A model generated the notes under the pieces. The model was given only the letters and a program-made list of their open reading frames with translations, made no database searches and had not been told where the DNA came from. Of a stretch of 64,000 bases of DNA, positions 8,747 to 46,692 are shown one piece after another. The translations under genes and the position numbers were made by a program. The stretch is from Gongronella butleri (lineage: Eukaryota > Mucoromycota > Mucoromycetes > Mucorales > Cunninghamellaceae), in NCBI GenBank assembly GCA_025201375.1, contig JAIWZP010000034.1, positions 1 through 64,000 of the forward strand, written 5' to 3'. Within the stretch, counting starts at the first letter, position 1, and each line of letters starts with the position of its first letter.

Positions 8747-11256
8747 GCGCATTTGAGGGGCACTGACGTACTCGAGACTGGCAAAAACGTCAGCATAGAA
8801 AGCCACACGTGAGAGCATGATTTGACCTCTGTGTTGACGCGCTACCAGATAAAGATCAATATGCGTGCAAAAGAAAAAGAGACAACCAATTGTTTTAAAA
8901 CACGAATTGCGCAAAAACAGCTTTAATAAAACTTGGTGCTTATTGTGTCAAAAAACGCAGAAATTCGCGTTTGCGCTCAACAAAGCAGAATCACCAAGAT
9001 CTAATGTAAATGGGTGAAATGGTATCAGCTAACTTAAGAGATATCTTGCCATTTCAATTTATCAGGCATTAATGCCTCTTGGCAATCATCGATAAAGCTT
9101 TATATGATAATCGTCGAGCGAGTTTTAGCCTGAAAAAGCATCTACTTCAAACTTGAGGCCATTTAAACACGTTCCCAGGTCAGAGTACCAAAAGCTGATT
9201 TTCAGCCATGGCCGGGCCCAAAAACCAAAATCAAAAAAATTAGGTCTCCACAATTGCGCAAAATTCACACACCAGAAAAGCTGCAACGAGAAATGAATAA
9301 AAGCCTCTTAAAAAGCGAGGTGCGTGCATCTGGTAGCAGAGGAGCAATGAGCAATTTTCGATTTTTCTTTCAGTGTGAATAGCACCCGAAGGACACGCCG
9401 CAGAAGAGCCGCGCTATAAATGCATCAAAAAGTTATGATAGAGACGCGCCAGATACAGTACGTGAATTTGATGAAAGTCTCGAGCAGCTAACACGGCGGC
9501 TGTGGAGCGAGCCATCATCCATCCAAAAAAGTGACATTCCGTAGTCTTTTTGGAAAGCGCCTACTCTGACAGAATTCATCTATCATATTTATTTTACAGA
9601 TCACCTACTACTGTACATAATACTGTACAGTACGTACATCCATTATTGATGCAACCGATCTTCTTGCTCTTTGCCTCTTTCTGATGAGCCTTGCTTTACA
9701 GTAAGGCGCTGCAGCAGATCTTCGTCGAGTTACTGTAGCCTTGGGTTGAAAATAAAGTCAAAAACACGCGCATTTTCCGCCAAAATCCAATAATCGACCC
9801 CAGGGTTTTTTTACGGCATTGCCCTCGGTTACTGTAACAGCATGCGTTTATTTATCTTATTACTGTAGACGTGAATGACGTGGCGATTTAGCAAACTAAA
9901 TTCCACCGCTTGAAAATTGGTCATCGAAGCATCTGAACCCATTCAATTTGGCCTCTCTCTTTTCAGAACAAACGTAAAAACTGGAGGTCTATCGAGCCGT
10001 TAACGACAAAATCGACATTTATCCATAAATTTACGTTTCCGGCCGCGGCGCACTAAAAATTTCCTCGATCGGGCTCAAACCTTCCTGTGTGGCACGATAC
10101 ACGCATGGGGACCATTTTGCCTCCGCCCAACAAAGTGGATGCGTGATCTTTGTACCCTTGCACGATGCAATCAAAAATTTCATGCCCGAATTTCTCGACA
10201 GCGAGCAAATCAAAACACAACGCGCTGCAGCGACAAAAGAAATAGAATTTGATGCTCTGTCAAATGAGCCCAGTTTTACCGTCGTGCAACCAAAACTGAT
10301 AGAGAAACGCAAATTTCTAGAATTTGAATTTAACTGCATGCCTTTTTCTCGAGAACCAACAAGTCGACCCCCGATTTTTATTGCATATTTGCTTAGCAAG
10401 AGGGGGCCAATGCATCTGATTCCATGATCTCCAAGCGCTGATGTGCAGGTTGCCAAACGGATTTGGGTTTTCTGTCTGTGCTTGAACCTCTCAAGCGGGG
10501 GACCCTCCAGATCCATTTTGACCTGACCAACTTTTTTTCATAAAATTCGAAAAAAAATATTTCACCACCAAGACTTCATTGCATCATTGCCATGAAACTT
10601 TGTCACTTATAGGATTTACAGTACGTTAACCTTCTCCTCTTTTTTTTATGTGTGCCATTCGAGACACAATCGTATTTTCCTTACAATATGGTGCATCTCA
10701 ACTAAAACCGCCACCATTTTTGCCATTTTTGGGAGGCGACCGGGCAAAAACATTTGTAAATCCCAAAAATTTTTGTCCATTGCTTGTCCCAGTGTCTATG
10801 ATTTTCCGATAAAAATGGGGGGTGACGAAGTGGGGCAATCCCCCTAATAGTTCGCCACCCCCTGTGGTGGAGAGCTATGATTTCCGTGGCCCCACTCATC
10901 CAATCGACCTAATACTATCAAGAGTTTATTAAAAGTCTACCTGAAAATGCCACAAACATGGAATTCTGACCGTCCTCCGGAGCTAATGGCTCAAAATTTT
11001 CTCCTTTTTTTAAAAAATCGAAGCCGTAAATATGAAAGAGTGGGTCGTGAGGAACATTTACCTATTACTGATCAGATTGTCTCTACGACCACCATTAAAT
11101 TGAACGCCATAAGCGATCAAAGTTCGGGGGTCGGGGACCTTTAAGCGGGGAGCCTCAGCAAATTGGACCTCATGTGGTGACCGGCTAATCTTTTCGGCAC
11201 CGGAAAAATGTTTTTCCGTGATGATTGATCAGTCATCTTATTTTTTTGCGTCCAGA
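8745..11256. other. AT-rich gene-poor block, left part
   Basis: No coding gene supported. ORFs here are short and lack recognisable domains. The block holds a copy of dispersed repeat family A (about 9,950-10,430) and many TACTGTA/TACAGTA heptamers (for example near 9,606-9,640, 9,698, 9,731, 9,829, 9,859, 10,617). Confidence 0.6.
9950..10430 (+). repeat. Dispersed repeat family A, partial copy
   Basis: This stretch aligns by eye with 18,340-18,950 and 37,890-38,100. Shared landmarks in the same order are an 'aaaactggaggtctatcgag'-like start, a 'tttctcgacagcga' block, 'agtcgacccccgattttta' and then 'agcaagaggg...aagcatct'-like sequence. Divergence is high and no conserved ORF runs through the copies, so it looks like an old non-coding repeat. 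Confidence 0.55.
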
Positions 11257-11340
11257 AATGAATTTGTAGCGCAGTGGCAAGAAACAGGGATGCCGCCGCA
11301 AAGTCAAGAGTTCGAATCTCTCTTGAATTTTTATTTTTTT
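11257..11340 (+). ncRNA. tRNA-like Pol III cassette (SINE head or tRNA relic)
   Basis: TAGCGCAGTGG at about 11,266 matches an A box (TRGYNNARNNG) and GAGTTCGAATCTC at about 11,309 matches a B box, at tRNA-like spacing. A T-run that could end Pol III transcription follows at about 11,328-11,340. The flanks do not form a 7-bp acceptor stem and the D arm does not fold, so this is not a functional tRNA by eye. It is better read as a tRNA-derived SINE head or a decayed tRNA. Confidence 0.35.
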
Positions 11341-12928
11341 TGCATTTTTAGAATTGGTCACTCCTTTTTTGGTATTTGCGTTAGAATTCGTCAATTTTCA
11401 AATTGGTCCCCCTGTGGCGGTTCTAGCTGAGATGCACCATAATACTCATAATCCACTTCCATGTCATCGGCGTCAGGCAGCGTTGGAACTGCCGGCAAAC
11501 TCGTCAACAAACGAGTGGCCTGTGAGGTCCGAGCCATGGTGGACGTTCGCGGCACGTGCGGTGGGGGCGCGATTGTCTAATTTGCGGTGAGGCGAAGGAT
11601 GGTGATGGGTTGCAGGTGGCGTCGCACGCATGATGGCGTCACAAACGTGTGTCGTCACCATATCGAAATTGGCTGGCGCCGTGCGCAAGCAATGCTTGCA
11701 AGTTTGCGTCGCTGCGGAGGGCTTGTTGAACTGAGCTTTCTTGGCGTGCACCACCTGCTGACCAGTCTTTTGCCATTGCTGGCGAGGTACAAATTGGTTT
11801 TGGTCCTTGGGCTTGGCATGATACGGAGCACCATTGCCATTGTTGCCGGACTGGCCAGATGATTGAGGGAGATGACTTTTGCCCGGAATTGGGCTGCTTG
11901 TTCTTCTTTTTGACCGCCTTGCCGCCACCGCCAGGTGCCGATTGAGAAGAGCCTTGATTCGCCGGGATTTTTTGCTTGTCATCGAGTGATTGGCCATCGT
12001 GGTAGATCTCTTGGTAAAAGTATCCCTTGGCCTCATCTTGGGCTGCCTGTGCAACCTCCAAAAATGATGGAGGTTGGTTGCTAGCACCGCGACGCGAAAA
12101 CTTGCGTGAAAATGTGTAAGCTCACGATTGGCCTTCAAAGACGCAACAAAGCGCAAACCAAGGTGATCATCATTGAGTTTGTTTGCCTTTTCCGCGAGAT
12201 CACGGTAATAGTGCAAATATTCGAGCAAATGTTGCTTTTTGCCGATTTTTGCACGGTCTAGCATTTGGGCGTAACGCAATGACGTGGCAGCGTGCCCGAA
12301 CAGTTCGAGGAGGATCGGTTTGACATCCTTTTCCCAAGACTTTACGGGTTGGTCTTGGACACGCACGAGCCTTATATTGCTCGCGTTGGGCCTGTGTGAA
12401 AGCCGTGTAGAGCACTTGGCTATGCCACACCAGGTCCAGGTTCAAGCCTGCGCGTGCGATGACAACCTCAAGCTCACGCATCCAATCCTCGACCGAATGA
12501 TAAATGGTGACTTGTTTTCCGGATGATGGAGAAACAGCACTATGCCAAGGAAAAAGTAACAAAGGCGTGTCAGTGGGCAAACGATATTGCTGCTTTGGGG
12601 GAACCACCCCATCCGTGGACGTCGTCACACTACCAGCCGATGTGTGCGCTGATTGACCCCCGATGGAGGTCGATTTGGCGTCATCTGGATGCAAAATGAC
12701 AAACAAGAGCCTGCAAATTGAGCTGAATCTGCTCAATGAGCTTGCGACGTTTTGCACACTCTGCATCGATTTGGCCTATGGCCACTTCATCACCGTGGCT
12801 CTGAGCCAACAGCAATTGGCGCATTAAAGCCTTCAAATGCTTTTGATGCGTCGCGAGCATGTCTCGTGCCACATCCTCCACCGACGTGGCATCCTCGTCA
12901 ACCTCCATGCTCGAAAACCCTGACACTA

Positions 12929-13129
12929 CAGTAGTACCTCGTTATAACGCACCTCATTATAGTGAAATCCTCATTCTAACGTAGTAAATTGAAATTTTCA
13001 TTTGGCTGTGTGTAACGAAAAAAGTCATGTGTGAGAGATTTTATAGCGTAATTTTGCTGTGGTTTTTATAACGTACTGTAGTCTATCATTTTCAAAATTT
13101 TTGAATTACGTTATAACGAGGTACTACTG
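12929..13129. mobile_element. 201-bp Tc1/mariner (pogo-like) MITE
   Basis: Terminal inverted repeats begin CAGTAGTACCTCGTTATAACG and end in the reverse complement (CGTTATAACGAGGTACTACTG). TA dinucleotides flank both ends (12,927-12,928 and 13,130-13,131), as expected for a TA target-site duplication. There is no ORF. The termini resemble pogo/Tigger-class ends known from fungi. Its right TA is also the left TA of the next element. Confidence 0.85.
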
Positions 13130-13131
13130 TA

Positions 13132-14137
13132 CAGTGCCCGGACAAAAAAAAGTTTCGCTGTGCATGATTCTCTGCAGTGCAAGGTATCAATTAATCGCGT
13201 TAATCTCTGCTGTATTGATCAATAATGGCTCCAGTGATATGAAATTTTGCAGGAACAATGATTTAAAAGTAAAAAAACAATTCTAAAATTATGAAATGGC
13301 TATGCCAAGCCGGTATTGAAATAGATCAAAAAAGGGATACCTGACGCGTCACGCGACGCGACGCGTGCCTACGCGTATACAATGGCCTGTGGAGATGAAT
13401 TGGCGTTATGAACACCATCTCCAATTTTTTTTTGCAACGAGTGCAATGGTGCCTGATTGTATTTTAAGAATCAATTCCATGTTACATGCATTGCATCGGT
13501 GCTGTGATCGAATAATGTAAAATCATCATGTGACACGCGTCACGCGTCAGACGCGCCAAAAGTCGCGATTTCCTTCGTAACATGGTCGTAGTGCTCCTAC
13601 TGGTCAACCAATCGATAACAGTCTATTCTAGTTCTTTAAATTAAATAAGTACAATGGTTTTAAGCCAACTAAGGATTAAAATTAGATAACAGAGATGGCA
13701 ATTGTTATTCCAGATGCAACTGACGCGTGACGCGTGTCACATGATGATTTTACATTATTCGATCACAGCACCGATGCAATGCAAGTAACATGGAATTGAT
13801 TCTTAAAATACAATCAGGCACCATTGCACTCGTTGCAAAAAAAATTGGAGATGGTGTTCATAACGTCAATTCATCTCCACAGGCCATTGTATACGCGTAG
13901 GCACGCGTCGCGTCGCGTGACGCGTCAGGTATCCCTTTTTTGATCTATTTCAATACCGGCTTGGCATAGCCATTTCATAATTTTAGAATTGTTTTTTTAC
14001 TTTTAAATCATTGTTCCTGCAAAATTTCATATCACTGGAGCCATTATTGATCAATACAGCAGAGATTAACGCGATTAATTGATACCTTGCACTGCAGAGA
14101 ATTATGCACAGCGAAACTTTTTTTTGTCCGGGCACTG
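13132..14137. mobile_element. 1,006-bp foldback MITE with CAGT ends and ~419-bp arms
   Basis: Starts CAGTGCCCGGACAAAAAAAA and ends with the inverse, TTTTTTTTGTCCGGGCACTG, flanked by TA on both sides (13,130-13,131 and 14,138-14,139). The inverted arms are 13,132-13,550 and 13,720-14,137, near-identical over their full length, around a 169-bp spacer. There is no transposase ORF. The arms contain dense ACGCGT/GACGCG motifs. The near-perfect arms suggest recent activity or gene conversion. It sits inside the gag pseudogene beside a second MITE. Confidence 0.88.
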
Positions 14138-14399
14138 TACTGTAGAGACTGCTCGGCAGTGTTAGTGACGCTTGCCACCGAGGCAGCACCCTCAATGGGC
14201 GGCTCGGCAGTAGTCTGCAAAGGGTTTGCCACAAGGGCATCATGTGCAATCGCACCATCTTGCGATGGGCGGTGCATTTCCTCAGCCGTAGTGCCCTCAA
14301 GAGCAGCGGCAGGAACAGAGACCGATGCCTCAGATGGAACCGAAGGCGATTGGCTCACTGAGTTGCGAGTTTGAACCATACAAAATGAGTTAAAAAACG

Positions 14400-15130
14400 A
14401 GCAGCAACAAGAAACGATTGGTTTGCTTAATGAAAGAAAAACTTTTCACTCCTACAAACAAAAGAACTCTGCGAGAGAGAGACAAAAAGGTACAAAAAAA
14501 TAAATGTACCAGAAAAAGAGGGAATTGTGCACAGACGTCAAAACTGACAGGTACAGTACTGTACTGTATCTGACACCTGAGTCACAAGTTGTGTTACACG
14601 AGTGACAACGAGTGACAAAATCACAGCCAAATTTTAGCCCAGTGACAGCGGCCATTTGTCGGGGTCACAAGAAAATGGCACAATACATAATGTATTGTAC
14701 CATGTCTCGCCTCATTTTTGTCAAGTACACAATGTACGTGACATTTTCTGAGTGACACGGCTCTGAGGTTCCGGACCATGATATTGTAGTGACCTTTTTT
14801 TTTTGCGCGTGGATGGATGGGCTCAATGTGGTGACCTTTTTTTTTTTTTTTTTTTTTGCGCGTGGATGGATGGGCTCAATGTGGTGACCTTTTTTTTTTT
14901 TTTGCGCGTGGATGGATGGGCTCAATGTGGTGACCTTTTTTTTTTTTTTTTTTTTGCGCGTGGATGGATGGCTCAGTGTGGTGACCTTTTTTTTTTGCAC
15001 GTGGATGGATGGGTTCAATGCAGCATAATGTACGCTAGCATGATGGTACACATGGAAAAAAAGTGCAACTACCCCTTTTTTTCTGTTTTCGGCGCGCCTC
15101 TGGACGCGTCGTTTTATAAAAAGAATATTT
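14400..15130. other. Non-coding stretch with chained TACAGTA motifs and a minisatellite
   Basis: Between the gag start and the Crypton gene. Near 14,550-14,572 TACAGTACTGTACTGTA chains three TA-(CAG/CTG)-TA steps. The 14,580-14,680 stretch repeats GAGTGACA/GTCAC-type words. The minisatellite at 14,787-15,022 is listed separately. No gene is supported; ORFs through the minisatellite are repeat artefacts. Confidence 0.6.
14787..15022. repeat. Minisatellite, five units of about 42-53 bp
   Basis: Five tandem copies of a unit reading GTGACC, T-run, GCGCGTGGATGGATGG, GCTCAATGTG. Unit length varies mainly because the T-run ranges from about 10 to 21. The fourth and fifth units carry substitutions (GCTCAGTG, GCACGTGG), consistent with decay from the edge. 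Confidence 0.85.
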
Positions 15131-15153
15131 AATATCATTTTTTTTCGTAAAAA

Positions 15154-17407
15154 CTACTCATTGGAAGAATTTTTGAGTGCGTGCGTCATGAACTTGCTCA
15201 ATGTCCAATTTTTTTGTTTTCTCTCTTTGTCCAATCTTGCAGCAATGTCATATACCGACACACCATCAGATGCTGCCAGGCGCTCAATTTGGCTGATCAC
15301 TCGCTGGCGGCGAGAATAGAATTGTCGCTCTGTATACAATAAAATAAAAAAAAATATCATAAATCAACAATATTCTTGTCACAGAATTCAGCACGTTTTA
15401 CCTTTATGATCACTCCTCCAAGAGGAACCAAACTCGGCATTCAAACTAACCACGGATGGCTTGCTTGGCGGAAGTCCATCGAACCATTCCTTCACAAGAT
15501 CGGCCAAGCTTTGCACATTTCTATCAAGGCGATAGGTAGATGTTGTGGCTGCATGGTCTTGTTCATTGTTGTTTCTTGGAGCACCTGCATTGGGAACCAT
15601 TGTTGCGCTGTGAGGATTCACAAAGTACGCGCAGGCTAATTTCAGGTGTTCCAGGTGATTTTTGACAACACCGACATCTTGCTGGACACTGGAGATCTGA
15701 GCAGAATCAGCACTCGTTGTCGCTTGCTGCTGAGATATCATGCTCCTAATAATCGCTTGGTTGCTGTCGATTTTGTTGCTCAAGTTCTGCAATTGCTCGC
15801 TGACCACGGGCAAGGCTCGGCGAACAAGAAGGTCTTGAGGTTCTTCCGCTGTGTTGATGGCAGAAAGCAATTGTTGCTCAAATGTGATGAATTCAGGGTC
15901 GCTGAAAACATCGTGCCAAAACAAGGGATGGTCAGGGTGGTCAACGCGGTGCAGCACGGAATCTTGCAGAAACACGCGGCGCATTGTCGCCAGAAGGTTG
16001 AGAAACGCTTCCGCGCAAATGGAATATTCTGTTCCATCGAGTTTGCGCGTGACCTTGTTGAGCCATTCTTCAACTTGCGGAAAGATTTTCTTTTGCAGCG
16101 ACTCGGGGGGGTCCAAATTTGCTCGGGGCAGCCAGTAAAATCCCTTTTCCGAGGAAAACCCATTGATGATGCGAATGGATTTGCGAGGGAGAGCAAGCAG
16201 GTAGCACTTTTCCATGCTTCCAGTTTCCCAACGACCGTGGCGGCGCAGGTCTTCTTCCGTCGCACCATCGATTTCCGCCAATTGGGCACCACTTCCACGG
16301 CCAGAATGTGTTTTCTTGGAAATGCGAATGTTCAAGGCCTCAAACACGCGATTCACAGCCCTAAGCTGCGTTCGATAGGTCATTGCATTTTCCGGGTGGC
16401 CATTCTTGAATGCTTTGACATCGAACCAAGTCGCGTTCTTCTCAAAATTTGGAAATTCTTCGCCTGAGATGTGCCATCGATAAAAAAAGTACTGTGCAAG
16501 GGCACCAAACGCACACACACGGTGGTCCTTGTGTCGGATGGCGCCACCGAACTCAACCTTGCCGAACTTGTTAGTTTTTCCATGGTCGAGACGAACCACC
16601 AACGCAGGACATTCGCTGAATCCTTCATCAGGGAAGACCACCTTGCAAAGATCCGCCAAATCAATGTCGCGCGAGCTTTCGCTTCGCAACAGCATCATAT
16701 GCTGGAGCAGAAACCAAGCACGATCCCTGAGCGAGATCTCTTTTTTTTGGCCAAACAAGAACATCGAGACTTGCACAAGCTGTTCAGCAGAGTAGCCGTC
16801 TTGGGCAGAATGCGCACCACGATCCACATACTCTTCTCGCTTGCGTTTGTGCTCCGCAATGCGCTTGTTCTTCAACCAGGCTTGCAATGCCGTGCCTCGA
16901 ATCTTCCCAGGTTCAGCGATTCTGTCAATGACTTGCGTGGAATGCAAATCAATCAGCGCCTTCACCTCCATTGAATACGATTCGAAGGATAAATCGCAAG
17001 GCATGCCGTCTTCGCGTTTTTTGTGTTGGTGGCCACGGCGAGACACGACATCCTCCAGATACACCAAGATCTTTTCCTCCGTGACTGCTGGACCATCAGC
17101 ATATTGTCTTTCGGCACAGAATTTCTATACAAAACATTCAATTAGGCCTCAAATACGCTCTTTTACTGCAATTGTCCTCGCTGCGCAGCTATTCATGGCT
17201 TACACTGAATTTCTCTTGTCTTGTTTTATAGCTAGCATGCGTGTTTGCTGGTCTCACTTCTTGGGTGAAAGTATTCATTGTCTGGCGCACGACTTCCTTG
17301 CCACGCTCCGTGTTTCTATCATAAGCAGCAGATGTGCTGCTGCTAGCAATCACACGTGACGCAGATCGATTTCGTGTAGAGGGCATAATAAAGAGGATTT
17401 TCTGCAA
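15154..17407 (-). mobile_element. Intact Crypton-type tyrosine recombinase gene
   Basis: Encodes a 700-aa DNA recombinase of the fungal Crypton class, a DNA transposon moving through tyrosine-recombinase strand exchange. Exons: 17204-17407, 15402-17124, 15154-15329; phases consistent, no stops. The catalytic set is visible: Arg215 in LLRSES, His341-x-x-Arg344 in THSGRGS, His364/Trp367 in RRHGRW and the nucleophile Tyr376 in EKCYLL. A coiled, Gln-rich linker follows. The third exon completes a GCR1_C-like DNA-binding domain ending WTLSKFMTHALKN. The overall architecture matches the Ndc10-like plus GCR1_C arrangement of fungal Cryptons. No terminal inverted repeats are expected for the class; I could not fix the element's outer ends. 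Confidence 0.85.
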
Positions 17408-20400
17408 ACAAAAAAAGGCAAAGGGTGGAATTGATCCCCTTTTTACCCCCTTTTTTATATCATCGTTTTAGATCCCCGCAGCAACATGCAGCCAAAAAAG
17501 GTATTTGCCATCGGTGACATTCAGTGACAGATAGGCCGGTGACACATTTGTCACTGAGCTTAAACTTTTGGCACATACCTTCACTGTACAGTACTGTAAC
17601 ACAACAAAAAAATGCAAGAAGCGGGGGTTTGTATAGCAATCAAAAGAGCGAGAGATGAATCGAATCCACTTAAAAAATGTAAACTTTGCGAATAAGTGAG
17701 ACAAAAGAAGATGGGGTTTTTAATCTGAAAACAGGGTGAAAAGAAAAGGAAAAGGGGAAATCTAAACAAGGTGGGATTTTATAGGCGAAAAAATGGGTGT
17801 GTGGCAGATTCACCGGCCGACACCGGACTCTCAGCTCGGTCTGAGCTCAAGCGCTAGGCACGTTGGTGCGGTGCCCTGTCCACAATGCACACAATGTGCA
17901 TTGACGCGCCTAGCACCCCACAATTGGCGTGCCTGGCTGATTGAGCTCATTGCTCTCGTTGTTCACAAAGGGCATTGATGGATGCATCACGTATTGAGCG
18001 CGTACAATTCAATGTGAGAGCATAGAGGATGATAAAGGTGCGCATTCTTCCTTATTTTGGGCATGCATCATGATTACTGTACAATGCGATGCGGATGACG
18101 GCCCGACAGCGGCCTGAGCGAGAGCGGGGAATCAAACCCCAGATTTGGAAGGAGCGTCGGAGCGACGTGTGCGGCAATTGCCTTTCTTTTCAACACTGGT
18201 AAAATACAAGGTACTATGCGCCATTGCGCGTCTAAACAACTTGATCGCGTATGCTCTGAGGACGGCAAATACAACAGACTGGATCAATTTCAAAACCATG
18301 TCATTTGTTCAGTTCCATCAATTTCTTTTTAAAAATCATTAAAAACCAGAGGTCAATCAGGTCGTTGCCGACAACTTTGAAATTTTGGCACTTTTTCCCA
18401 ATTCCAGTCTTGCAAACCACAAACCAAGGTTGAATCACCTCCAAAACTTTGCAGTAAGGGTTTTCTGCGGGGCTTTTTCAACAAGCCGTTCAAAACTTGA
18501 GATCGATTGGGTTGTTGTGCAGATGAATCCAAAATATTGACATTTTCAGAATTTCGGGCGTCAGTCGCCAAAATATTTTTATCACCCTCATAAAACTTGC
18601 ATCATTAGAAAGAGACGATATCAAACGTCGCTTTAGGATTATTTGCAGCCAAGATGGACGACATTTGTACGCTTGCAAAATACGATCAAACATTTGATTT
18701 AATTTTAAATTCCATTTTCTCGACAGCGAAAGAACAACCCGCGGCACTTTTAACGTAGCGTAAGCATCTGGTCAATCTGTACCAAATGAAACCAGTTTCA
18801 TCGATGGATGGCCAAAACTCGCAGAAAAATTCCACTTTTTCATCGAAATCTTTGATCGCAATTTGCCCGACAATGGTCTCATAAACCTGTGATTTTTATT
18901 CCAGTTTTACTAACAAACACGGGTGCAAAGCATCTAATGGGGTGACTTGCAGTGCGTTAGCTTGAGTTTTGCTTTTTGGATCGGTCATTTCACGAGGCTG
19001 CAGCCCACTCAGCGCATAAAAATGTGCAAAAATAAAAAATAAAAAATAAGAAAAACTAAAATATTCCATGCATTCCACGCACCTTAATTTGGAAGTGTCA
19101 AACCTTAAATTTTTGCAAAAAAAATCTTGATCAAAGTAGGCAATTTTTCTCGGTCGATCGCCGTTCATGCGTCTCTCTTTGAGCGTTTTTCTTACTTGGG
19201 GGCGACTTGTCATTTTGTCTGCCAATAGCAAATCGTCGGAGTTACCTGTTTGGGATGCATTGATCACTCGGAGTTCAAATTTTCCTAAATTTGGCATCTT
19301 CTGAGATTGAAATGTGTGACCCCTGAATGACCCCTGAGTGACCCCTGAATTTTTCAAAAGTGATCGTAGCGCATTGGGGGTTTAAGCTTTTTTGTTGCAA
19401 ATTTTGCGCTGAAATCGATGCGGCTATTTTTGAACAGGGTTGACCATTCAGATGACCAGATAAATGCAACAAAATAGAGAAAATTGAATGCTTTTGGAAT
19501 TTGTAGGCTCAAAAAAAATCGGGCGGACCCGTCGCGAACGCTGGGCGGTAGCTCGTGCTGTGTAGCGATTTTCATCGGCGGGCAGGTAGACTGTAAAAAA
19601 ATTTCTGGAGGCACAGCAAGCCGTCAAAGTCGGAAAAACACGCATTGTCGTTTTGCAACGGCAAACATGTGCGTTTTTGTACAGTGTAGAGCGCTTGTTG
19701 CAGGCATTTAACCAACAGCACGCGTCAAATTCTCTCCATTGCAATTAAAAATGCAAGGATCAAACGCTTTATTTTTGGTGTGCAGCTTCTTCTTCATGAA
19801 ATCCCAAGATTACAGTATGAAAATCGAAATGCTTTTGTGCAATTTCTCGGGTGCTGACCAAAATATTTTTTGAAACAATGACACGATGATGCGCACCACA
19901 CTTGCCAAAAAAAGCCTTCAAAAAAGCTTTCTCAGAGCTCCAAAATAATGCCCATGCGCAAGGTTTACTCGCTCTTTTTAGTTTTTACAGTTTGTGGTGC
20001 CGATCACTGTGCATGATAGATACAGTACTCTCAAATTCCTAGGTGCAACCGGTACTCTTTTAATTTGTTGCCCAAAATGCAAACTTTTATATTTTATTAT
20101 ACTGTACTCGTTACTGTATTCACCTTTTTTTCACCGGTCGTAGCGTTGTTTTTAAACGCATAGTGGTGGCTCTCCGATTGTTTGATTTCGCGTCTGTCGC
20201 GACGACAATCGAATAAAGGCAATGGCATGCAAATGGTAAAAATAGAAATGAAAGAACGTCAGTCAGCACGTCATACGTAAAAGAACGCGGTGTCGGATCA
20301 GTGCGCAGTTTCAATTGCAAATTCAGGGGATTTGCGTGTTCTCATTTTGGGGAGGAGAGGAGCCCATTTTGTTTCGCCTTTTTTTTTTTTTCTCTCGTTT

Positions 20401-22536: not shown

Positions 22537-22753
22537 ATGTTTTACCAGCAGCAGCAGCGTTATCCTGAGCCTGCTCTTGGGGCTCATCACGTATACCAAC
22601 AGCCTCATCCTTCGTACACCACGCCCTATGGGTCTCATCAGTTGCCATTGCAGCAAGTGGACCCGGCGTCGCAACAGCAAAATTCAGTCTTGGTAAAAAA
22701 AAAAAAAAAAAAAAAAAAACACGCGCTTCTTTTTCTTTTTTTTTTTGACGCCT

Positions 22754-22801
<48 letters not shown>

Positions 22802-28313: not shown

Positions 28314-28347
<34 letters not shown>

Positions 28348-36663: not shown

Positions 36664-36799
36664 ACAACGAAAAAGAGAGTGACAGGTGAAGGGGAATAGA
36701 CGAAAGAGTGGCAAAATAAAGACGAGCTCCGCCCATTTTGAATGTTTTTTTTGCCCCCTTTTCCTACTTTTTCCTCCATTTTTCTTGAGCTGTCCGATC
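36664..36799. promoter_or_regulatory. Shared divergent promoter of RIT1 and SRR1-like gene
   Basis: Only 136 bp separate the two start codons, so both promoters must lie here (unless they extend into the genes). Poly-T stretches precede the SRR1 ATG. No clear TATA or CCAAT box. Confidence 0.5.
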
Positions 36800-37739: not shown

Positions 37740-37879
37740 ATGCTCGTGGGGACCCGCCACCCGCAGCAAACTGTACAAAGGTGCCCAAATTTCAAATAAA
37801 AAAGTGACAAATCAAAATGAATCGACGCAAAATATCATCATATGATGAAGCGCTCTTACGTAAAATCTAGGGGTCAGTC

Positions 37880-38320
37880 TTTTGAACGATATGATACGTA
37901 CAGGCGCTTTTAACGTATCAAAAGCACCTGTTGAATTTCTATCTAATGAGACTAGTTTCACAGATGGATGGCTACTGTAAAACTTGCAGAGAAAATTCAA
38001 AATCTTTGATCGCGATTTGCTCGACAACAATCTAGTCGACTCCCGATTTTTATTAAATTTTTACTAACAAAGAGGGGGGCAAAGCATCCAATTGAAAAAC
38101 TTGCAGCGTGCTATCATACTGTTACTAGGTTAAGTTTGAACATTTTTCATCGATCGTTTCTGCAGGTTGCAGTCCACCAGTGCACAAAAATACAGTATGC
38201 GCGTTCATGCGTCACTCTTTGCTGCAGGGTATTTTTCTTTCAGTATTTTTGGGCGAGCGACTTTCCATTTTGTGCGCCAGTAGTACATCGTCGGATTTAA
38301 CATGATACTGTAAACAAACC
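37880..38320 (+). repeat. Dispersed repeat family A, partial copy
   Basis: Shares 'agtttcacagatggatggc', 'aatctttgatcgcgatttg', 'tagtcgactcccgattttta', 'ttactaacaaagagg' and 'cattttgtgcgccagtag' with the 18.3-19.8 kb copy, in the same order. Truncated before the distal half. Confidence 0.65.
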
Positions 38321-38479
38321 ATCATTTTACAATAAAAAATAAAGGAACACCGAGAAATACAGTAGAATTGGTCTCATTTGAAATAAAGTGGCTGGGTTCA
38401 TCTCTTCATCATCATGCCGCGTTGACCCCATCATTTGCAATGATGAAACGTGCTTGTTTATTGAAAACTAAGTAAAAAC

Positions 38480-38972
38480 CGAGGGTGTCAGACTCTGCCC
38501 TGCAGGCCTGGCATTGATCGCCAATCCGCAGCAAATGCTGCGGCAAAATGTCAAAATCCAATCTAAAAATATCCAACGCGCTTAGGAGCGCGTCTCAAAT
38601 CAAATGCATCCGATCTGCAAGAGCGGATGTTCACCAATTAGTCAAGGCTCCTCAATCTGCACCTCTCTATCGCAAGCTTTCTCTCTTTTACATCTCGTGT
38701 CAAGCCAACAATCTTGTTTCCCCTCTCTGTGGCCTCTCCTCGTTGCAAGTTCCTCGTGTCCCCCGTCAATGCATGTCCAATGCTCAGTCAGCTCCTTTTC
38801 CTTTGTCAGCTCCTTTTATTACTAATGCAGTCCTCGATTAGTGAGCATTGGAAGGAGGTCAAGGACCAATGGGCCTCGACCTCAAGCCCCTTTCTGGTTT
38901 TCCAGGGCAGATGCCTTTCAAATATAAATAGTCTCATACTGTAATTCTCATAAGAAATAAAGGCATCTGCCT
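38480..38972 (+). repeat. Possible solo-LTR-like sequence
   Basis: Contains a TATA-like TATAAATAG (about 38,922), an AATAAA (about 38,955) some 33 bp downstream, and a short inverted pair, GGCAGATGCCTTTC / AAAGGCATCTGCC. The order TATA then AATAAA over a short span resembles an LTR promoter/poly(A) module. Ends and target duplications could not be fixed, so this is tentative. Confidence 0.25.
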
Positions 38973-39798
38973 CAAAAGCAAAAAATTATCAAGAGGACGC
39001 GCAGGACAAAAAAAAGGTACGGTACTGTACCATACACGCACGGCGGGCAACAATGATGGCGGCGCCTCTTTTTAGAGCTCGCTCTGCGGCCGCAAGCGTG
39101 GCGCGCAACTCATCTTGCGCGGTGATGATGGCCTCCATCCATCCAGTTAACTGCCACTGGTCCGGGTGGGCCATCAGCTTTCGCAGCAGCTAGATGCCGA
39201 CTTTGAATTTTGGGGTACGATTTATCCTTTTTTGGTGTCCTCCCCTTTTTTTATGCCGTCGTTCCCCACCATGTACAGTATTTTATTCTCTTTTTTTTCT
39301 TTTGTTTTTTTTTTGCAAGTTTGCATGCACAGATCTTCCTCCTCATGGATGGAGACAGAAGTGAGCAGTCGTCGTGTTTTACTTTAGTTGCAAAGCTGGT
39401 GCACTTCTTTATGTTTCTGTGAAAGCGTCTGACGTTGTTTGACCATACACTCCACTTCTTAGAACGCATCGCACCAAACAACGACATGTCACAAGAGAGA
39501 AAAGAGACGTGCGAGAGAGGGCTAGAAAAAAAGTCGCAACAACTACAGTATTGAATGAGTGACGACGAGCGACTGTGCTTGTGAGAAGCCGTTCTACTGA
39601 ACAAATTAGAGCAAGAGAGACAAACCGTAATATCATAAAAAGATACGTAAAAACTATTGCTGTTGGTCGATCTAAGGACCGAGCACGCAAAAAAAAGGGA
39701 GGACTCCAAAAAAGGATAAATCTTACCCTAAAATTCAAAATTGCCCAGGTAGATCTTCTTCCGTCTATGATAATCACGTTCTGCCTAATGGGCCTATG

Positions 39799-40344
39799 TT
39801 GAATTTTCCGGGATCAAATACTTGGCTGGTAAAGACGTTTTAATCTCTTGCTAGACGCCTAGGAAGTGCACTTAGAGGCTACAACGCGATGCCTCTGGAT
39901 GTAAAATTTGATTTGGAATCGAATGGTGTTACTTTCGAGCCATGCTCTCTTAGTAAAAACGTGAAAAAATCGCACATTTACCGCCAAAAATCAAAATCGG
40001 CCAAAATGTCGTAAATTGCAATTATCTCGAAATTTTACTAAGTTAACGGACACCGTGTGAGAACTTTATTCGATTCTAAATTAAATTTTACATCGAACTC
40101 GTGTGACAAAATAGCGATTTAAGCAGGTTTTGAGGTACTTCCATTAGAGCAAACCGCAGCATTTGAGCCAAATCTCTAAGTACTCAAAACCCAGCAAATA
40201 GACATGTAATTTAAACACCGCCATGAGTTTCTACGACCTTGAAAACATATAAAACGGCAAAACAACTCCATTTGCAGCTTCATCGTGATTGGCCAAAACC
40301 TGGGTGTAGCTGGGGTCGGGGGTATTTGATCCCGGAAAATTCAA
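39799..40344. mobile_element. 546-bp TIR element with internal palindrome
   Basis: Perfect 23-bp terminal inverted repeats: TTGAATTTTCCGGGATCAAA... at 39,799-39,821 and its complement at 40,322-40,344. A second inverted pair lies inside (GTAAAATTTGATTTGGAATC / GATTCTAAATTAAATTTTAC). There is no ORF. A 9-bp GCCTAATGG occurs just outside both ends but not abutting the TIRs. Superfamily unknown. Confidence 0.75.
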
Positions 40345-40570
40345 CGTACGCGCCTAATGGCGTCCAGAGAGCGAGATCGTTGTTGACGAGGTAAAGACCT
40401 CATAATAATATTCGTCGGACAGAATGGACGCCGACGTGACCACGGAGGAGGTGGGGGCAGCAGTGTTGTTGAGGAGGGGAGAAGTAGAATGTTGCATTTC
40501 TAAAAAAAGAAAAAAAATAAAAGAAAAATGTTTTTTATACCGTACTGTACGGTATCTGCCTCAATCTGTT

Positions 40571-40722
40571 AGGTCCCAGCGCATAATCACACTCTAAAAC
40601 GTAAAACACCCAAATGGCTCTAGGAAAGCAATTTTTCTCCCGGTAAGATCACTTTCCTAGAGCCATTTGGGTGTTTTACGTTTTAGAGTGTGATTACAGT
40701 ACTGTATTATGCGCTGGGACCT
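40571..40722. repeat. Foldback repeat with a 13-nt insertion in one arm
   Basis: Left arm 40,571-40,628 and right arm 40,652-40,722 are inverse copies around a ~23-bp loop. The right arm is identical except for an added 13 nt containing TACAGTACTGTA (about 40,695-40,707). Just left of it lies another near-palindrome, ATACCGTACTGTACGGTAT (about 40,539-40,557). Confidence 0.9.
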
Positions 40723-41802
40723 ATCACAACAGAGGGTTACAGCAGTAGTAATCGAGCCGGTGACAAGAAAATCGATGATATTTCTCCAGCACTTACTGCA
40801 ACAACAACGTATGTTCTACAGAGAGGAAGAAGGAAGATTCGCCGATGATGAAATGCTTAATGCGGCGGGGCGTCGTCGACTTCCCGCGGACGGACAGCAA
40901 ATGTGGTACTGTTGTACATACTGTATCTTCCACGGAAAGATGTGGAGAAAGCTGCTACCGTATCATACATGACCCAGCTGCTTACGTACTGTATGATACC
41001 GACGACAAGCAAAAAAGCATTTGTGTACTACTGTATGACGAAGTATTGGTGATATGATAATTTTTTAAAAAAACACAATTTGGGAGCGCGCGCACTGGAG
41101 CTAAATTTTTTATTTCACGCATTATTATTTTATTAGTCCGTCCTCCTCCAATTGTCCATTTCGGCGGATTGGTTCCAAGACTTCAAGCAGCGTCAGAGCT
41201 ACAGTAAGGGAAAAAGAAAGGACATGCGCTGTGCGGATGTCCTTTTACAGTATACTCTAAGGATCAAGGGAAAATAGCGGGGGTCGTATCGTCAAGGTGA
41301 TGGATCCTTCGGATCCATCAGTAAGAAGGGGATTTAACGCCATGTTAAGGGTCAATTGCATGTTAGGAGGTTGGGTCATCATGCATTATTGGTGCTGGCC
41401 ATCAGGAATTAATTAGGGGCTGAGAGCGGTCGCGCGAAGGGGACAGCCTTGACGAGGGATGGCTGTGACGATCCGGGCACGGACCGACACGTCGAGGTCC
41501 CCAATTGCGAGGGGGCGAAGGCGACCAGTGATCCGTGCGCGCGCCGCTTCGCGGCGCGCGCTTATATCGGGGCTTCTTGGATTGACGCGCCACAAAAGCC
41601 GGCTGGTAACGCCCACGGGAACACTTGGCAAGTTGAGGAGTAACCATTGTTGGAGCCAGAGTTTAATAACAAGAAAGGGGATAAGAGTGTGTGTGTGTTG
41701 TATTCAGTGGGGAAAAACTAATTGAGTGTCCGGAAGAAGGGGATACTGTATACAGTATATAAGAGAGAGAAGGGGACGATGAAACGCTGGTTGACTAGTA
41801 GG
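40723..41802. other. Gene-poor stretch with GC-rich hairpin island
   Basis: No gene supported. AT-rich flanks enclose a GC-rich island at about 41,400-41,640. Two perfect hairpins share the loop TTC: 41,298-41,320 (10-bp stem TGATGGATCC) and 41,537-41,561 (11-bp stem GCGCGCGCCGC). Palindromic ATACTGTATACAGTAT lies at about 41,743-41,758. A weak 87-codon frame at 40,709-40,972 shows no known domain. Confidence 0.6.
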
Positions 41803-43055
41803 ATGTTACCGGGGGGAAAATTGGTATTTCCTTTTTAGGAAATAATTTCTGAATTCTATTAAAAAATACGAATTTTCCAGAAATGGTAATTTCACGTTAC
41901 ACATGGATTATCTCGGCCCACAGACGTCGTACAGGCTCCGCGAAACATGTATTCGAATCGCTGACATCGTGGCTTTCCGATGGTAGTAGTTTCAAAGTCC
42001 GATGGCTAGTGGATGGATAGATATTTACGTTTGCAATTTCTCGCTCCACAACGGCATTATTAATGTGCAATTTTTTTGAATCCCGCACTAATTAAACCGG
42101 GGTCAAAACATCTGAAAATGCGTTTTTTGGAATTTTAAAATTGGCTTTTTCTACAGTAATGCCATTTTTTCTATTTTGCATTTTTCTCGCCATCTAATTG
42201 GCTGACCCTACTCAAAGACGGCTGCATCGCATTCAACGCAAAATTTGCAACAAAAAAGCTTAAACCCCCAAAGCGCTACGATCACTTTGAAAATTTCAGG
42301 GGTCACATATTTTAATCTCAGAAAATGCCAAACTTGGGGAATTTCTAACTCCGAGTGAAATGCATCCCAAACAGGTAACTCCGACAATTTGCTATTGGCA
42401 GACAAAATGACAGGTCGCCCACCCTAAGAAAAAGGCGCAAAGACCAAAGAGTGATGCATGAACGGCGATCGACTGGGAAAATTGCTTACTTTGGGTGCAA
42501 AAATTTAAGGTTTGACACTTCCAAATTTAGGTGGTGGATTGCATAGATCTTTTCTTTTTTTACTGTATTTTTTTTATTTTAGATTTTGTTGTACTGTACA
42601 CGGCTTGAGTGGCACTTGGGTGGAATCGCGGATGCAAAATTTTCAAACGCACTCTACTGTAGCATCGTGAAAGTGGTCCCATTACATGCTTCAACCCCTT
42701 ATTTGTAAGTAAATATGGAATAAAAATTGCGTTGTTAAATCAATGCCATTGTCGAGAAAAATAAGTCATATTATTGGGGGTTAATTCAAAAAACAAAAAA
42801 TATTTATTGGGGCACAACATAATCAGGATCAATATTTTCGTCAGCATTGTCTTCGTCATCCGTGTCATCGGAGGATTCAATGGCCACAAAATCGCCATCT
42901 GCTGCTGCATCACCATCCGCGGAGCCTGTACGACGTCTGTGGGCCGAGATAATCCATGTGTAACGTGAAATTCCATATCTGGAAATTTCGCATTTTCTAA
43001 TAGAATTCAGAAATTATTTCCTAAAAAGGAAATACCAATTTTCCCCCGGTAACAT
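41803..43055. mobile_element. 1.25-kb TIR element enclosing an inverted copy of repeat family A
   Basis: Inverted arms of about 140 bp (41,803-41,942) and 137 bp (42,919-43,055), starting ATGTTACCGGG...AAAATTGGTA and ending ...ACAGGCTCCGCG, with a few mismatches. The ~975-bp interior lacks a transposase ORF and carries an antisense copy of family A at 42,200-42,545. It looks like a non-autonomous DNA transposon or MITE that captured, or was invaded by, another repeat. Confidence 0.8.
42200..42545 (-). repeat. Dispersed repeat family A, inverted copy
   Basis: Reverse complement of the 18.97-19.42 kb segment: 'aaatttgcaacaaaaaagct', 'agcgctacgatcactttgaa', 'aggggtcacat', 'catcccaaacaggtaactcc', 'ttgctattggcagacaaaat'. 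It lies between the arms of the 41,803-43,055 element. Confidence 0.8.
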
Positions 43056-43112
43056 TATGGACAAGCTCCACGCTTCGGAGAAAGCGCCGAGGAAGTGTTT
43101 GTACAAACAACA

Positions 43113-43230
43113 GTATGCATGCACGCCACGCTGGTCCAGATGGGAATAATAAATACGCATGCACGCCACGTTGGTTCAATTGACAATAATAATATGCATG
43201 CACGCCACATCAATTCAGATGATAAGGATG
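43113..43230. repeat. Three tandem ~40-bp units
   Basis: Three units headed TATGCATGCACGCCAC (second TACGCATGCACGCCAC), spaced about 40 and 39 bp, with diverging tails. They lie between the TIR element and the transposase fragment. Confidence 0.8.
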
Positions 43231-43359
43231 CTAGCATGCCGAGTTGATCTTGCTAGGGCATGGCCATTGTTTGCCAAAGGCATGGCCATGACAATGGCAC
43301 AAGAGCGCGTAAGAAAAAGGTAATCCAGAAAAAAATGCATGGCGTGAATCTTGGCTTTG

Positions 43360-43810
43360 CGGGCATACTGTAACAGTCGGTGCTATTGTCCTGATAATCA
43401 ACAACATCCCACGACAGTGGCGATTTGCAGACGACAATGTCATTTTGGTCGGCATGATGCCAGGCTGCGGCAAGGAGCCCAAAGCCAGACAAGATGAACG
43501 CATTCCTATCTCCGCTTGTCGACGAGCTCAAGGACTTGTACCGACGAGGTGTCGAGATGCACATTGACCCAGACATGTCCCAGCCGCGTCGACGCGTCAG
43601 AGCTGCGCTTTTAGCCGTCGTGCCGATGACTTGCTTGCTGCCTGCCGCGCGCAAGATTACCGGTTTTGTCCATGACGTCGGAAAAAAGGGGTTGTCACAA
43701 CAAATGCGACGACGCATCATTTCTTCGATCTGTACGACATCCAGGAATGCCTCCTGTGGCCCGTGTTTCCTACAGTATGTTGGCTTCCGCGCGCGCCGCG
43801 ACCACGACAA
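43360..43810 (+). pseudogene. CACTA/Plavaka-like (KDZ) transposase fragment
   Basis: The plus strand reads INNIPRQWRFADDNVILVGM then, after at least one frame change near 43,460, MNAFLSPLVDELKDLYRRGV and VRAALLAVVPMTCLLPAARK. This order (NLPRxxR..N.ILVGIIPG, then PLVDEL, then RAAL....D.PA.RK.CGF) is that of tnp2/Plavaka-type transposases in fungi. Only the middle of the protein is present; the frameshift and missing N- and C-terminal parts mark a decayed fragment. Confidence 0.55.
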
Positions 43811-44919
43811 TTATTGACCTCCAAATACTGTATGATACCAACAAAATTAACAGAGACCATGCCAAGAAGGCATTCCAAGAAGGGTTGTTGCCGACACCGG
43901 AATCATGTAATCGCTCTTTCACATGGACGTGTCCATTGTGATTTTTAATTAAAAATATCACGCTCTGCGAGCAGCAAACACAACATTTCCTCCATCTGCC
44001 TTAACATCGTGTCCCTTTTATTTATCATCATTTCTTGTCTATCATACGGTATCAATAATAATAAAAAACCAAAAAATCAATGGCGGCTGCCAATCACTCA
44101 TGGTTTTTTCCCCTACTACTGTACCCGCATCCTATGGGGCTCGAGCCCTAACAATTGTCGCAAAAGAAAATGAACCTCTGCCCAAGGACGACGTGCTGCA
44201 AGCGCAATTCGAGTGCCGCAAAGCAACGAAGTTGCCAAGTGGTGACTACGAGATGATGCTGAAAAAACCACAGGAGTAGTACTACTGTACTCATTACTTG
44301 GTTCCGCTTCTGCGCATCCACTCCTCCATTGCAGCAACAACGTACAACATGGATACCCGCAACAACCTCCTCATGATCAACCTCCCATACCGGTAAGAAG
44401 AATCATCCTGCACATGTAAAACAAAACGTCGTCCATTTTTGATTTGGTAATTTTTCACACAATAATGTTGCTTCTTATTATTAGGGCGAATAACAACCTG
44501 ACTCTTTTTTTTCAACAAGCTACAGTACCATAAATCTCTTGCCGCCATCATTCCCTTCACTCATCAAAAAAGTCTTCGCTGCCAACCAAAAAATCGCTGT
44601 ATATTATGTCATCTCCAATTTCCGCCGCCTTTTTTTGGTATTACTGTATATCATAATAATGCATTTGCGATCTCGCTGCTGCTCGCCAACAAAGGCACAT
44701 CATCTGACCTTTTTTTGTGATTTCAAGCCATCTTTTGCCGCCGTCCCCCGTCGCCCAGCGAAAACAACGTCATCGCCGCCCATCAAGCAAAAAGTCGCTG
44801 TCATGTCCAACTTCGGTCACTTTTGGTAATAATGCATTTGCTTTATCGCTCGCAATAATCGCCTGGCTATTTTTTCTTTGTGATTACACTCGCAGATTCA
44901 CTGGTGGCGAGCGACCTGT

Positions 44920-45840
44920 CATATCGTATGGTGATGCCATCTTTAATTATTTATTGAGATTTGATCGACAACGGTCTAGTCGATCTCCGATTTTTATTGT
45001 GAGTTTACTAACAAAAAATTGGGTGCAAAGAAGCATCTACTGTAATCTTCTAATGGGATGACTTGCAGCGCGTTAACTTCTTGGGTTTGAATGAACATTT
45101 TGCATCGGCCATACAGTATCTGCAGGCTGCAGAGCACATGCAGTCCACCAGTGTACACAAATAAGTTGCTATTTTGGGAAGGAGTCAAACATGAATTGGC
45201 GAAAAAAATCTTGACCAAAGCAGGCACTTTTTTCAGTCGATTGGCGTTCATGGGTCACTCTTTGGGCGACCTGCCATTTTGTGTGCCATTGGCAAATCAT
45301 CGAACTTACCTGTTTGGGATGCATTGATCACTCGGAGGTCGAAATTGACCGTTTTTGGGATTTAAATGTGTGACCCCTGAATTTTTAAAAAGTGATCGTA
45401 GCGCTTTGAGACTTTAAGCTTTTTTGTTGCAAATTTTGCGCCGAGTACGATGCACGTATTTTGAGCGGGGTCGACCATGCAGACTGCCAGATAAATGCAA
45501 AACAGTACGCATACCGTATGATGTTTTTGCGGCATTTTTGAGTCCAAAAAAATCGGGCGGGTCCGGCTTGAGTGCTGAGCCGTAGCCCGTAGACTACTGT
45601 ATGTCGTGACGCATTTTTCATTAGCGGGCCAGTGGGCTGTAAAAAAAATTCTGGAGGCACTGCAGGCCTGCAAAGTCTGAAAAATGCGCTCTTTGGTTTT
45701 TAAAAGGTAGATGAATACGATTTTGTGCAGTGTAGCGTAATTCTTTAGGAAATGAAATGAAAGTACACGTCAGTTTCTGTCCACTGTAATAAAAAAAGGG
45801 CGGATCAAACACGTTTTTCTGTGCAAAAATCCAACAAAAC
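44920..45840 (+). repeat. Dispersed repeat family A, long copy
   Basis: Co-linear with 18,880-19,790: 'ttactaacaaaaaattgggt', 'gcaggcacttttttcagtcg', 'cctgtttgggatgcattgat', 'aatgtgtgacccctgaattt', 'agcttttttgttgcaaattt', 'ccagtgggctgtaaaaaaaa'. Divergence includes indels, among them inserted TACTGTA (about 45,041 and 45,595) and TACAGTA (about 45,109) heptamers absent from the other copy. Confidence 0.78.
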
Positions 45841-46163
45841 GGATGAAAAAATGGTGTTTTGTGTATTTTCTGAGGCACTTGATTACTGAGTTTTTTTTTA
45901 AAGAGACAGGACACACTTGCAGCAGCTCCCTCTCCAAATTTAAGTGCACGAGCGCAGATTCAGCGTTGTGGAACAAAAAGTTAATTTTTTTCAAAAGTTG
46001 GTATCTAGCTACGGTACAATACTGTATCATACATTCTTAAAGCTCTTGCCTAATACCGTATCCATCTAAGGGCATCCTGATCAAGCTCAAATTTCATCTG
46101 CATTTTTCGCAACAATCGCCGATTCTGACAGGTGGCTTCTACAGAATCGCATGCAATCCGTAC

Positions 46164-46167
<4 letters not shown>

Positions 46168-46216
<49 letters not shown>
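46168..46216. repeat. (TA)n microsatellite
   Basis: About 24 uninterrupted TA dinucleotides, able to extrude a cruciform. Confidence 0.95.
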
Positions 46217-46218
<2 letters not shown>

Positions 46219-46692
46219 CATTTTTAAGAAACAAAAAGGGAATTTGAGGCACATGCACTACGCGACTCAAGGACTAAAGTGATATGCAGGTACGATACAG
46301 TAAACTGTAACATAATTGGACCCACACTATCGCGATTTCAGCAATGGCAATCATTCGCATTTGTAAAATCATCAAATTAGGGATCCACCATTGCTTTCAT
46401 GTGCGTCTAGAGGAAAGGAGCAGCTGATTATGCGGGTCACAACGGCTGTGATGATTGTGGACAACGTGCAAAGGCTTCAAGAAGCAACAATACCAGATGA
46501 GAAAAGAAAAGTCATGAAAAAAGAAGTCAAAAATGTATTTTGCCACTGCACGGATCAAGGCGTACGCGATTTTTTTTTTTGGGTTTCTGGGGGTGGCGGC
46601 GGACTGCAAAATAAAGGCGGCAAGCAGGCCGCCCCAGATTTTGTGTCGCCTCTCTTTCGCGCTTTTTATTACTTTTTTTTTTTTTTTTTTTC

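What the first reader, a model, noticed from the sequence alone, without database searches (positions are those of the whole stretch)
8900..46310. About fifty TACTGTA/TACAGTA heptamers look like Tc1/mariner excision footprints
By eye, TA-CTG-TA and TA-CAG-TA occur about fifty times in 8.9-20.2 kb and 37.9-46.3 kb, and almost nowhere in the gene islands (one near 62,257). Established: cut-and-paste Tc1/mariner elements with CAGT ends leave TAC(A/T)GTA as their canonical footprint, and two such elements with TA duplications sit at 12,929-14,137. Chained forms such as TACAGTACTGTACTGTA (14,555) or TACTGTATACAGTA (41,744) read as repeated insertion and excision at the same TA. The inference is that these blocks record a burst of MITE mobility whose elements have mostly left.
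Basis: partly seen in the sequence, partly recalled or inferred. Interest (0 to 1): 0.8.

Follow-up and report, generated by a model that had tools for sequence, protein, structure and literature searches.

The report
Thousands of jumping-gene exit scars
Two gene-poor stretches of a fungal genome are dotted with 5-base scars left where cut-and-paste jumping genes moved out, and counts of the same short words over the whole genome suggest that such exits have happened many thousands of times.

Summary
In detail: TACTGTA/TACAGTA occurs 58 times in the window against 1.55 expected, 57 in the two named blocks. The 33.0-Mb genome has 16,213, against 554 for the equal-composition TAGACTA/TAGTCTA. 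The excision-footprint reading is well supported. Between paralogous repeats, 53 of 88 well-flanked 5-bp gaps are plain TA against TA-X-TA, X being only CAG/CTG, TCA/TGA or CCG/CGG. Two window heptamers have an empty-TA paralog in the sequence in hand. On the repeat RepA, TA is the commonest state and the scar sits in one or two copies. Resident Tc1 elements have matching ends: CAGTGCCC (65 ends per strand; a DD34E transposase like Sleeping Beauty's) and CCGTGGC. Chain lengths fit random re-insertion into any nearby TA. Readable scars look younger than the repeats carrying them (about 3% against 10% divergence). The kind is known; the density is unusual.

The parts
8900..20300 (.). block 1: 23 TACWGTA heptamers (9,454 to 20,112), with TATSATA at 9,103, 9,434, 9,581, 15,355 and 17,317
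37900..46400 (.). block 2: 34 TACWGTA heptamers (37,973 to 46,296), 10 TATSATA and 8 TACSGTA
37973..37979 (+). TACTGTA footprint in a RepA copy; empty TA in paralogs L019 (2 mismatches in the joined flanks), L014 (3) and L037 (5)
39274..39280 (-). TACAGTA footprint in a ~550-bp repeat (39,195-39,743); empty TA with identical 15-base flanks in the 93%-identical copy in L020
14552..14568 (.). chain of three footprints TACAGTACTGTACTGTA
40538..40554 (.). mixed chain TACCGTACTGTACGGTA: CCG, CTG and CGG scars on consecutive TAs
41744..41757 (.). two footprints on adjacent TAs, TACTGTATACAGTA
12927..13131 (.). 201-bp non-autonomous element, TIR CAGTAGTACCTCGTTATAACG, TA duplicated; its two ends account for 2 of the 58 heptamers
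   Evidence: TIR resembles the Tigger-like MITE ends tabulated in PMC4678618 (passage); 7 other places in the genome
13130..14139 (.). 1,006-bp non-autonomous Tc1-type element, TIR CAGTGCCCGGACAAAA, TA duplicated; one of the short members of a 65-ends-per-strand family
41807..43051 (.). third TA-flanked inverted-repeat element, 1,245 bp with both TAs; ends CCGGGGGG and CCGGGGG differ by one G; holds a RepA fragment and 4 heptamers (42,152; 42,561; 42,592; 42,655)
18743..19700 (+). RepA copy, a high-copy diverged repeat used as substrate for the allele comparison; this copy holds no footprint heptamer
   Evidence: 1,161 first-look candidates, 40 scored; 39 other places at 79-84% identity

Best explanation
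The heptamers are excision footprints of cut-and-paste Tc1/mariner and pogo transposons. An element sits in a TA, which is duplicated on insertion. On excision three bases of the element's tip stay on the flanks as overhangs (established for Sleeping Beauty); end joining of these leaves TA-XXX-TA, a gain of 5 bp. Tips CAG leave TA-C(A/T)G-TA, tips CCG leave TA-C(C/G)G-TA, and tips TCA or TGA leave TA-T(C/G)A-TA. In all three classes bases 1 and 3 are complementary, so the two overhangs can pair around one central mismatch, which would explain the odd-palindrome form. Each footprint adds a TA, and re-insertion there makes chains. Shown here: enrichment; exact 5-bp TA against TA-X-TA alleles in paralogs; minority state of the scar in one repeat family; resident elements with CAG and CCG tips, TA duplications and open transposase frames; chain statistics. 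Inferred: the repair pathway and the overhang rule, the number of independent events, the recency, and the identity of the element that made any given scar.
For: enrichment in the window; 16,213 against 554 for TAGACTA/TAGTCTA in the genome; 5-bp gaps: 53 of 88, about 27 of 46 distinct sites, are TA duplications with X limited to CAG/CTG, TCA/TGA, CCG/CGG; joined 15-base flanks with a plain TA found elsewhere for 16 of 355 CAG/CTG, 3 of 148 TCA/TGA, 1 of 41 CCG/CGG, against 1 of 267 other TA-NNN-TA words, at up to 5 mismatches; five RepA sites with TA commonest; chains; elements with CAG and CCG ends in duplicated TA; Tc1 transposases, one related to SB100X at 3.4e-29 with a DD34E layout. Papers, passages only: PMC3432063, PMC7827188, PMC4378557.
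Against: No sister strain or second haplotype was available. No filled allele at a scarred site was found (0 of 9 joined-flank probes). 43 of 58 window heptamers have no paralog in the sequence in hand, so for them the reading is by analogy. The TCA/TGA source element was not found. Only 5 of the 35 TA positions scored on RepA show a footprint. The reversed word ATGTCAT, a poorer control because its dinucleotides differ, occurs 6,355 times. The sample behind the gap counts was partly picked for heptamer clusters.
Confidence: 0.93

Rival explanations
1. They are footprints, but from few independent events: scars were copied along with amplified repeats and segments.
For: RepA has 1,161 first-look candidates (40 scored), and at one RepA site 2 of 16 segments carry the same CTG footprint.
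Against: At 4 of the 5 footprint sites on RepA only one segment carries it; 43 of 58 window heptamers are in sequence with no paralog in hand; heptamers have decayed less than RepA.
Confidence: 0.12
2. The heptamer is a protein-binding or regulatory motif kept in clusters by selection.
For: Near-palindromic, clustered, little decayed.
Against: Paralogs differ by whole 5-bp gains at TA rather than by substitutions, and two other TA-NNN-TA classes behave alike; chains fit random TA insertion.
Confidence: 0.02
3. The heptamers are the termini of resident elements whose TIR begins CAGTA.
For: 12,927 and 13,125 are such ends; pogo-type ends begin CAGTAG.
Against: 2 of 58 in the window; the first element has only 7 other places in the genome, and the pogo-type end pattern has 21 matches, far too few for 16,213.
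Confidence: 0.02
4. A pentanucleotide microsatellite or AT-rich composition effect.
For: Chains have a 5-base period.
Against: Shuffles give 1.55; 301 of 366 runs are single units and longer runs mix CAG, CTG, TCA, TGA, CCG and CGG.
Confidence: 0.01

Closest known systems
Sleeping Beauty excision footprint TAC(A/T)GTA (PMC3432063 and PMC7827188, passages)
   Same: Identical heptamer; TA target; 3-nt overhang left at the donor site; a resident transposase is related to SB100X
   Different: Natural, dense in the genome, with two further footprint classes; the excision itself was not observed
Excision sites of DNA transposons in Asian against African rice (PMC4423477, abstract and passages)
   Same: Natural excisions read from genome comparison
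   Different: There 94 putative excisions, 8 of them perfect, the rest with deletions or filler; here one short scar form makes up most of the 5-bp gaps examined. The present method looks only for small gaps and would miss large deletions
Stowaway (Tc1/mariner-type MITE) excision footprints in Triticeae (PMC1925063, abstract and passages)
   Same: Short TIR fragments between duplicated TAs, several losses and gains at one place
   Different: One locus across species; here many sites within one genome
Passer, a pogo-superfamily element (PMC9976928, passages)
   Same: pogo-type elements also leave short footprints, 0-4 bp there
   Different: Assayed in cells; here pogo-type elements are only candidate contributors

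Membership tests
Tc1/mariner-type excision footprint | TA duplicated around a short remnant, plain TA in the empty allele | tested here: met
   53 of 88 well-flanked 5-bp gaps between paralogs; dinucleotide control; 2 window sites
Tc1/mariner-type excision footprint | remnant equals the terminal three bases of a resident element | tested here: met
   CAG; CCG. Not met for TCA/TGA: no source found
Tc1/mariner-type excision footprint | element-filled allele at the same site | tested here: inconclusive
   0 of 9 joined-flank probes found a spanning match in about 0.23 Mb
Tc1/mariner-type excision footprint | excision observed | not testable with these tools
   needs an assay or strain comparison
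Tc1 transposon (CAGTGCCC family, L021:4056-5392) | TIRs, TA duplication, HTH plus DD34E transposase | tested here: met
   (34 residues between the second D and the E in the alignment to 5cr4; which residues are catalytic is recalled)
pogo/Tigger-type MITE (window 12,927-13,131) | TA-flanked TIR of pogo/Tigger type without coding capacity | tested here: met
   similarity of the TIR to Tigger-like MITE ends in PMC4678618 (passage) judged by eye
pogo/Tigger-type MITE (window 12,927-13,131) | mobilised by a resident pogo transposase | tested here: inconclusive
   3 DDE_1 matches, each with stops inside

The most novel reading that the evidence does not exclude
This genome keeps a readable ledger of very many (order 10^4) cut-and-paste excisions, repaired mainly by pairing of self-complementary 3-nt overhangs, so that clean scars come only from elements whose tips have complementary bases 1 and 3 (CAG, TCA, CCG). 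Scars outnumber the identified resident source elements by about two orders of magnitude and are younger than the repeats they sit in, which makes transposition rate, target choice and repair outcome measurable from a single assembly.
Probability: 0.5. Interest if true: 0.75.

Novelty: new member of a known kind. Interest (0 to 1): 0.58.

Why it matters
Excision footprints are usually seen one locus at a time or in cell assays. A genome in which they are dense and little decayed would let one count transposition events, tell element families apart by their scar, test whether insertion is random over TAs, and estimate repair outcomes in nature. It also warns that 5-bp indels of this form between strains or paralogs are transposon scars, and that such heptamer clusters should not be annotated as regulatory motifs.

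Tried and rejected
Motif-array, microsatellite, element-terminus and copied-scar readings were considered (see rivals). Looking for the TCA/TGA-ended source: TIR scans of the sequence in hand and of transposase loci found none; L025-L028, L030 and L038-L041 gave no convincing TIR inside the fetched 1.6-3.5 kb. A joined-flank search for empty sites of element insertions (9 probes, among them two boundary choices for one L029 element, one probe over both elements at 12,927-14,139 and one with a wrong left boundary in L023) gave no spanning match. A first flank search (CAG/CTG 51 of 363, TCA/TGA 16 of 150, CCG/CGG 5 of 42, others 21 of 329) counted self-matches and controls that touch footprints, so I replaced it. 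Reversed patterns as controls are poor because dinucleotides change (TATGATA 9,529 against 1,031; TACCGTA 1,999 against 9,577); I rest on resampling. The heptamer age (p 0.025-0.036, Markov order 1 and 2) leans to young scars and should be read as a lower bound; an earlier version on dense bins only gave 0.026.

Rows dropped before counts: alignments wholly within L010/L011, a tandem array; gaps with fewer than 8 of 10 matching bases on either flank; also gaps with a further gap nearby (86 instead of 88); low-complexity flanks; only TAs present in the query copy were scored, and the query itself counts as one TA row. In one search, copies that do not reach a position count as empty there.

Paper searches bearing on novelty: (open-licence PMC only). 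Their listings showed no report of a genome-scale natural footprint deposit in a fungus; that is weak evidence of absence. Beyond listings I saw passages only of PMC3432063, PMC7913693, PMC9976928, PMC4678618, PMC4423477, PMC7928374, PMC1925063, PMC2874221, PMC7827188, PMC4378557 and PMC10512250.
Full report
Observation. TACTGTA/TACAGTA occurs 58 times in the window against 1.55 expected in dinucleotide-preserving shuffles; 23 lie in the first block, 34 in the second, 1 at 62,256. By Markov-1 resampling the blocks hold 57 against 0.9 and the remaining 44.1 kb 1 against 0.65. The window is C39:1-64000 of an unnamed 33.0-Mb genome in 110 contigs with 16,213 heptamers on both strands, clustered in the positions listed for contig C1. 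TAGACTA/TAGTCTA, of the same composition and with the same TA borders, has 554; the reversed word ATGTCAT, a poorer control, has 6,355. The host looks like a fungus near Mucorales, judged from one protein only: the GT41 transferase at 24,280-26,874 has Circinella, Apophysomyces and Radiomyces as its best named hits at 55-58% identity.

Other scars. In 194 kb (the window plus 13 samples of 10 kb, 11 of them from contig C1 and most of those picked because they held heptamers) the 731 TA-NNN-TA words are led by CAG/CTG 282, TCA/TGA 136, AAA/TTT 54 and CCG/CGG 35; AAA/TTT I put down to AT richness, though in the blocks it too is above resampling (11 against 3.78). Genome-wide, TATGATA has 9,529 matches and TACCGTA 1,999; part is background, which I did not measure genome-wide.

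Empty against footprint. All-against-all alignment of the 194 kb gave 424 paralog alignments. Of well-flanked 5-bp gaps, 53 of 88 are plain TA in one copy and TA-X-TA in the other, and X is only CAG/CTG (42), TCA/TGA (8) or CCG/CGG (3). The same form makes up 14 of 166 3-bp, 13 of 87 4-bp, 10 of 28 6-bp and 0 of 43 7-bp gaps. Counted by approximate distinct site, 27 of 46 5-bp gap sites duplicate TA; AC follows with 8, which I read as an alignment-shift effect of TACTGTAC, and each other dinucleotide has 0-3. Alignments share copies, so site counts are safer. In the window, 39,274 has an empty counterpart with identical joined flanks in L020, and 37,973 has empty counterparts in L019, L014 and L037.

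Direction. RepA (window 18,743-19,700) is a high-copy repeat: 1,161 first-look candidates, 40 scored, the 39 other than the query at 79-84% identity. Of the 35 TA positions scored on this copy, five show a footprint in some segment; there TA is found in 10 of 16, 10 of 16, 7 of 15, 15 of 19 and 11 of 19 segments and the footprint in 2, 1, 1, 1 and 1. In a 16-copy alignment at least 9 of the 45 listed 5-base insertions form the heptamer (counted by me from the listing), and 13-15 of the 15 other copies lack each; copies not reaching the position count as lacking it. The change therefore reads as a gain.

Sources. The end TACAGTGCCCGGACAAA occurs 65 times on each strand. Of the 100 ends listed, 98 form 49 pairs, 8 of about 1,337 bp and 41 of about 1.01 kb, and 2 are single (pairs counted by me). 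Window 13,130-14,139 is a short one. L021:4056-5392 is a long one with a 383-aa frame carrying HTH_Tnp_Tc3_2 and DDE_3; it matches SB100X at 3.4e-29, with the D, D and E positions aligned and 34 residues between the last two. TACCGTGGCTCTCAAAAG occurs 21 times, in 10 pairs of about 1.63 kb and one single; L012:6703-8336 is one, with a 339-aa Tc1-type frame. The window holds another TA-flanked element with CCGG tips at 41,807-43,051. pogo-type elements with CAGTAG ends exist (L022:236-3134; 21 ends), but the 3 DDE_1 matches contain stops. DDE_3 gives 74 matches, some of them pieces of one gene. Mucorales are reported to hold more than 200 Tc1/Mariner copies per genome (PMC7928374, passage).

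Mechanism. For Sleeping Beauty, cleavage leaves 3-nt 3' overhangs on the flanks and end joining leaves them as the footprint (PMC7827188, passages); TAC(A/T)GTA is its typical footprint (PMC3432063, passages). My inference: CAG with CAG can pair at both outer bases around a mismatched centre, and so can TCA and CCG; repair to either strand gives exactly TACWGTA, TATSATA and TACSGTA. A resident element with CAC tips (L021:5403-6789), which could not pair so, has no matching excess in the sample (CAC/GTG 9). This is a rule suggested by few families and still to be tested.

Chains. Dropping the same number of footprints per 500-bp bin at random on the available TAs reproduces the run lengths: 301/48/13/3/1 observed, 310.8/48.1/9.0/2.2/0.5 simulated. 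No preference for old scars is needed.

Age. Single-base neighbours of the heptamer exceed background only slightly, giving about 2.5-3.6% change per site for recognisable scars, against a mean of 10.1% (7.3-14.1%) for 16 RepA copies to their majority sequence. The estimate leans to young scars and depends on the background model, so 'recent or continuing' is likely rather than shown.

Limits and comparison. No sister strain; filled alleles not found; TCA/TGA source unknown; 43 of 58 window heptamers lack a paralog in the sequence in hand. Rice gave 94 putative excisions, 8 perfect (PMC4423477, abstract and passages). The mouse genome holds over 300,000 of the two heptamers (PMC4378557, passage), which with a recalled size of about 2.7 Gb is roughly four times sparser than here.

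Verdict. The kind is known; the density, the three parallel classes and the fit of chains to random re-insertion are the notable parts.

Noticed in passing
window 15388-17067 (-): 559-aa open frame with NDC10_II (1.1e-52) and GCR1_C (1e-7) domains inside the transposon-rich block; that this pair recalls Crypton-type tyrosine recombinases is from memory, not tested.
   Followed up: no
window 9944-10617: Repeat family with at least 39 other places at 68-75% identity; an open frame at 10031-10516 (-) has no Pfam match.
   Followed up: partly
window 39195-39743; L020:4976-5510: A ~550-bp repeat, 93% identical between the two places; in L020 it interrupts RepA relative to other copies (gap 552-556), so it is probably mobile.
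   Followed up: partly
L029:194-1567: Tc1-type locus whose two ends both read ATACTGTACCGTACCCTAC: the terminal repeat itself looks like a chain of TA-XXX-TA units. Unexplained.
   Followed up: no
L010:7158-10000 and L011:1-2331: Tandem array with a period of about 195 bp on contig C1 near 17-22 kb (self-alignment offsets); excluded from the gap counts.
   Followed up: no
window 39795-40031; L022:1-237: 237 bp identical between the window and the left flank of a pogo element on the same contig, ending exactly at the TA where the pogo element begins.
   Followed up: partly
window 10687-11441: TA-flanked inverted repeat TGGTGCATCTCA, 751 bp, one mismatch in 16.
   Followed up: no
literature, PMC2874221: This review prints the Sleeping Beauty footprint as TAG(T/A)CTA (passage), unlike PMC3432063 and PMC4378557; that word has only 554 matches in this genome.
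   Followed up: yes
194-kb sample: Smaller gap classes of the same TA-X-TA form: X = CG (10 gaps), CCGG (4), TGAA (4); CG and CCGG could be one or two bases kept from each element tip.
   Followed up: partly
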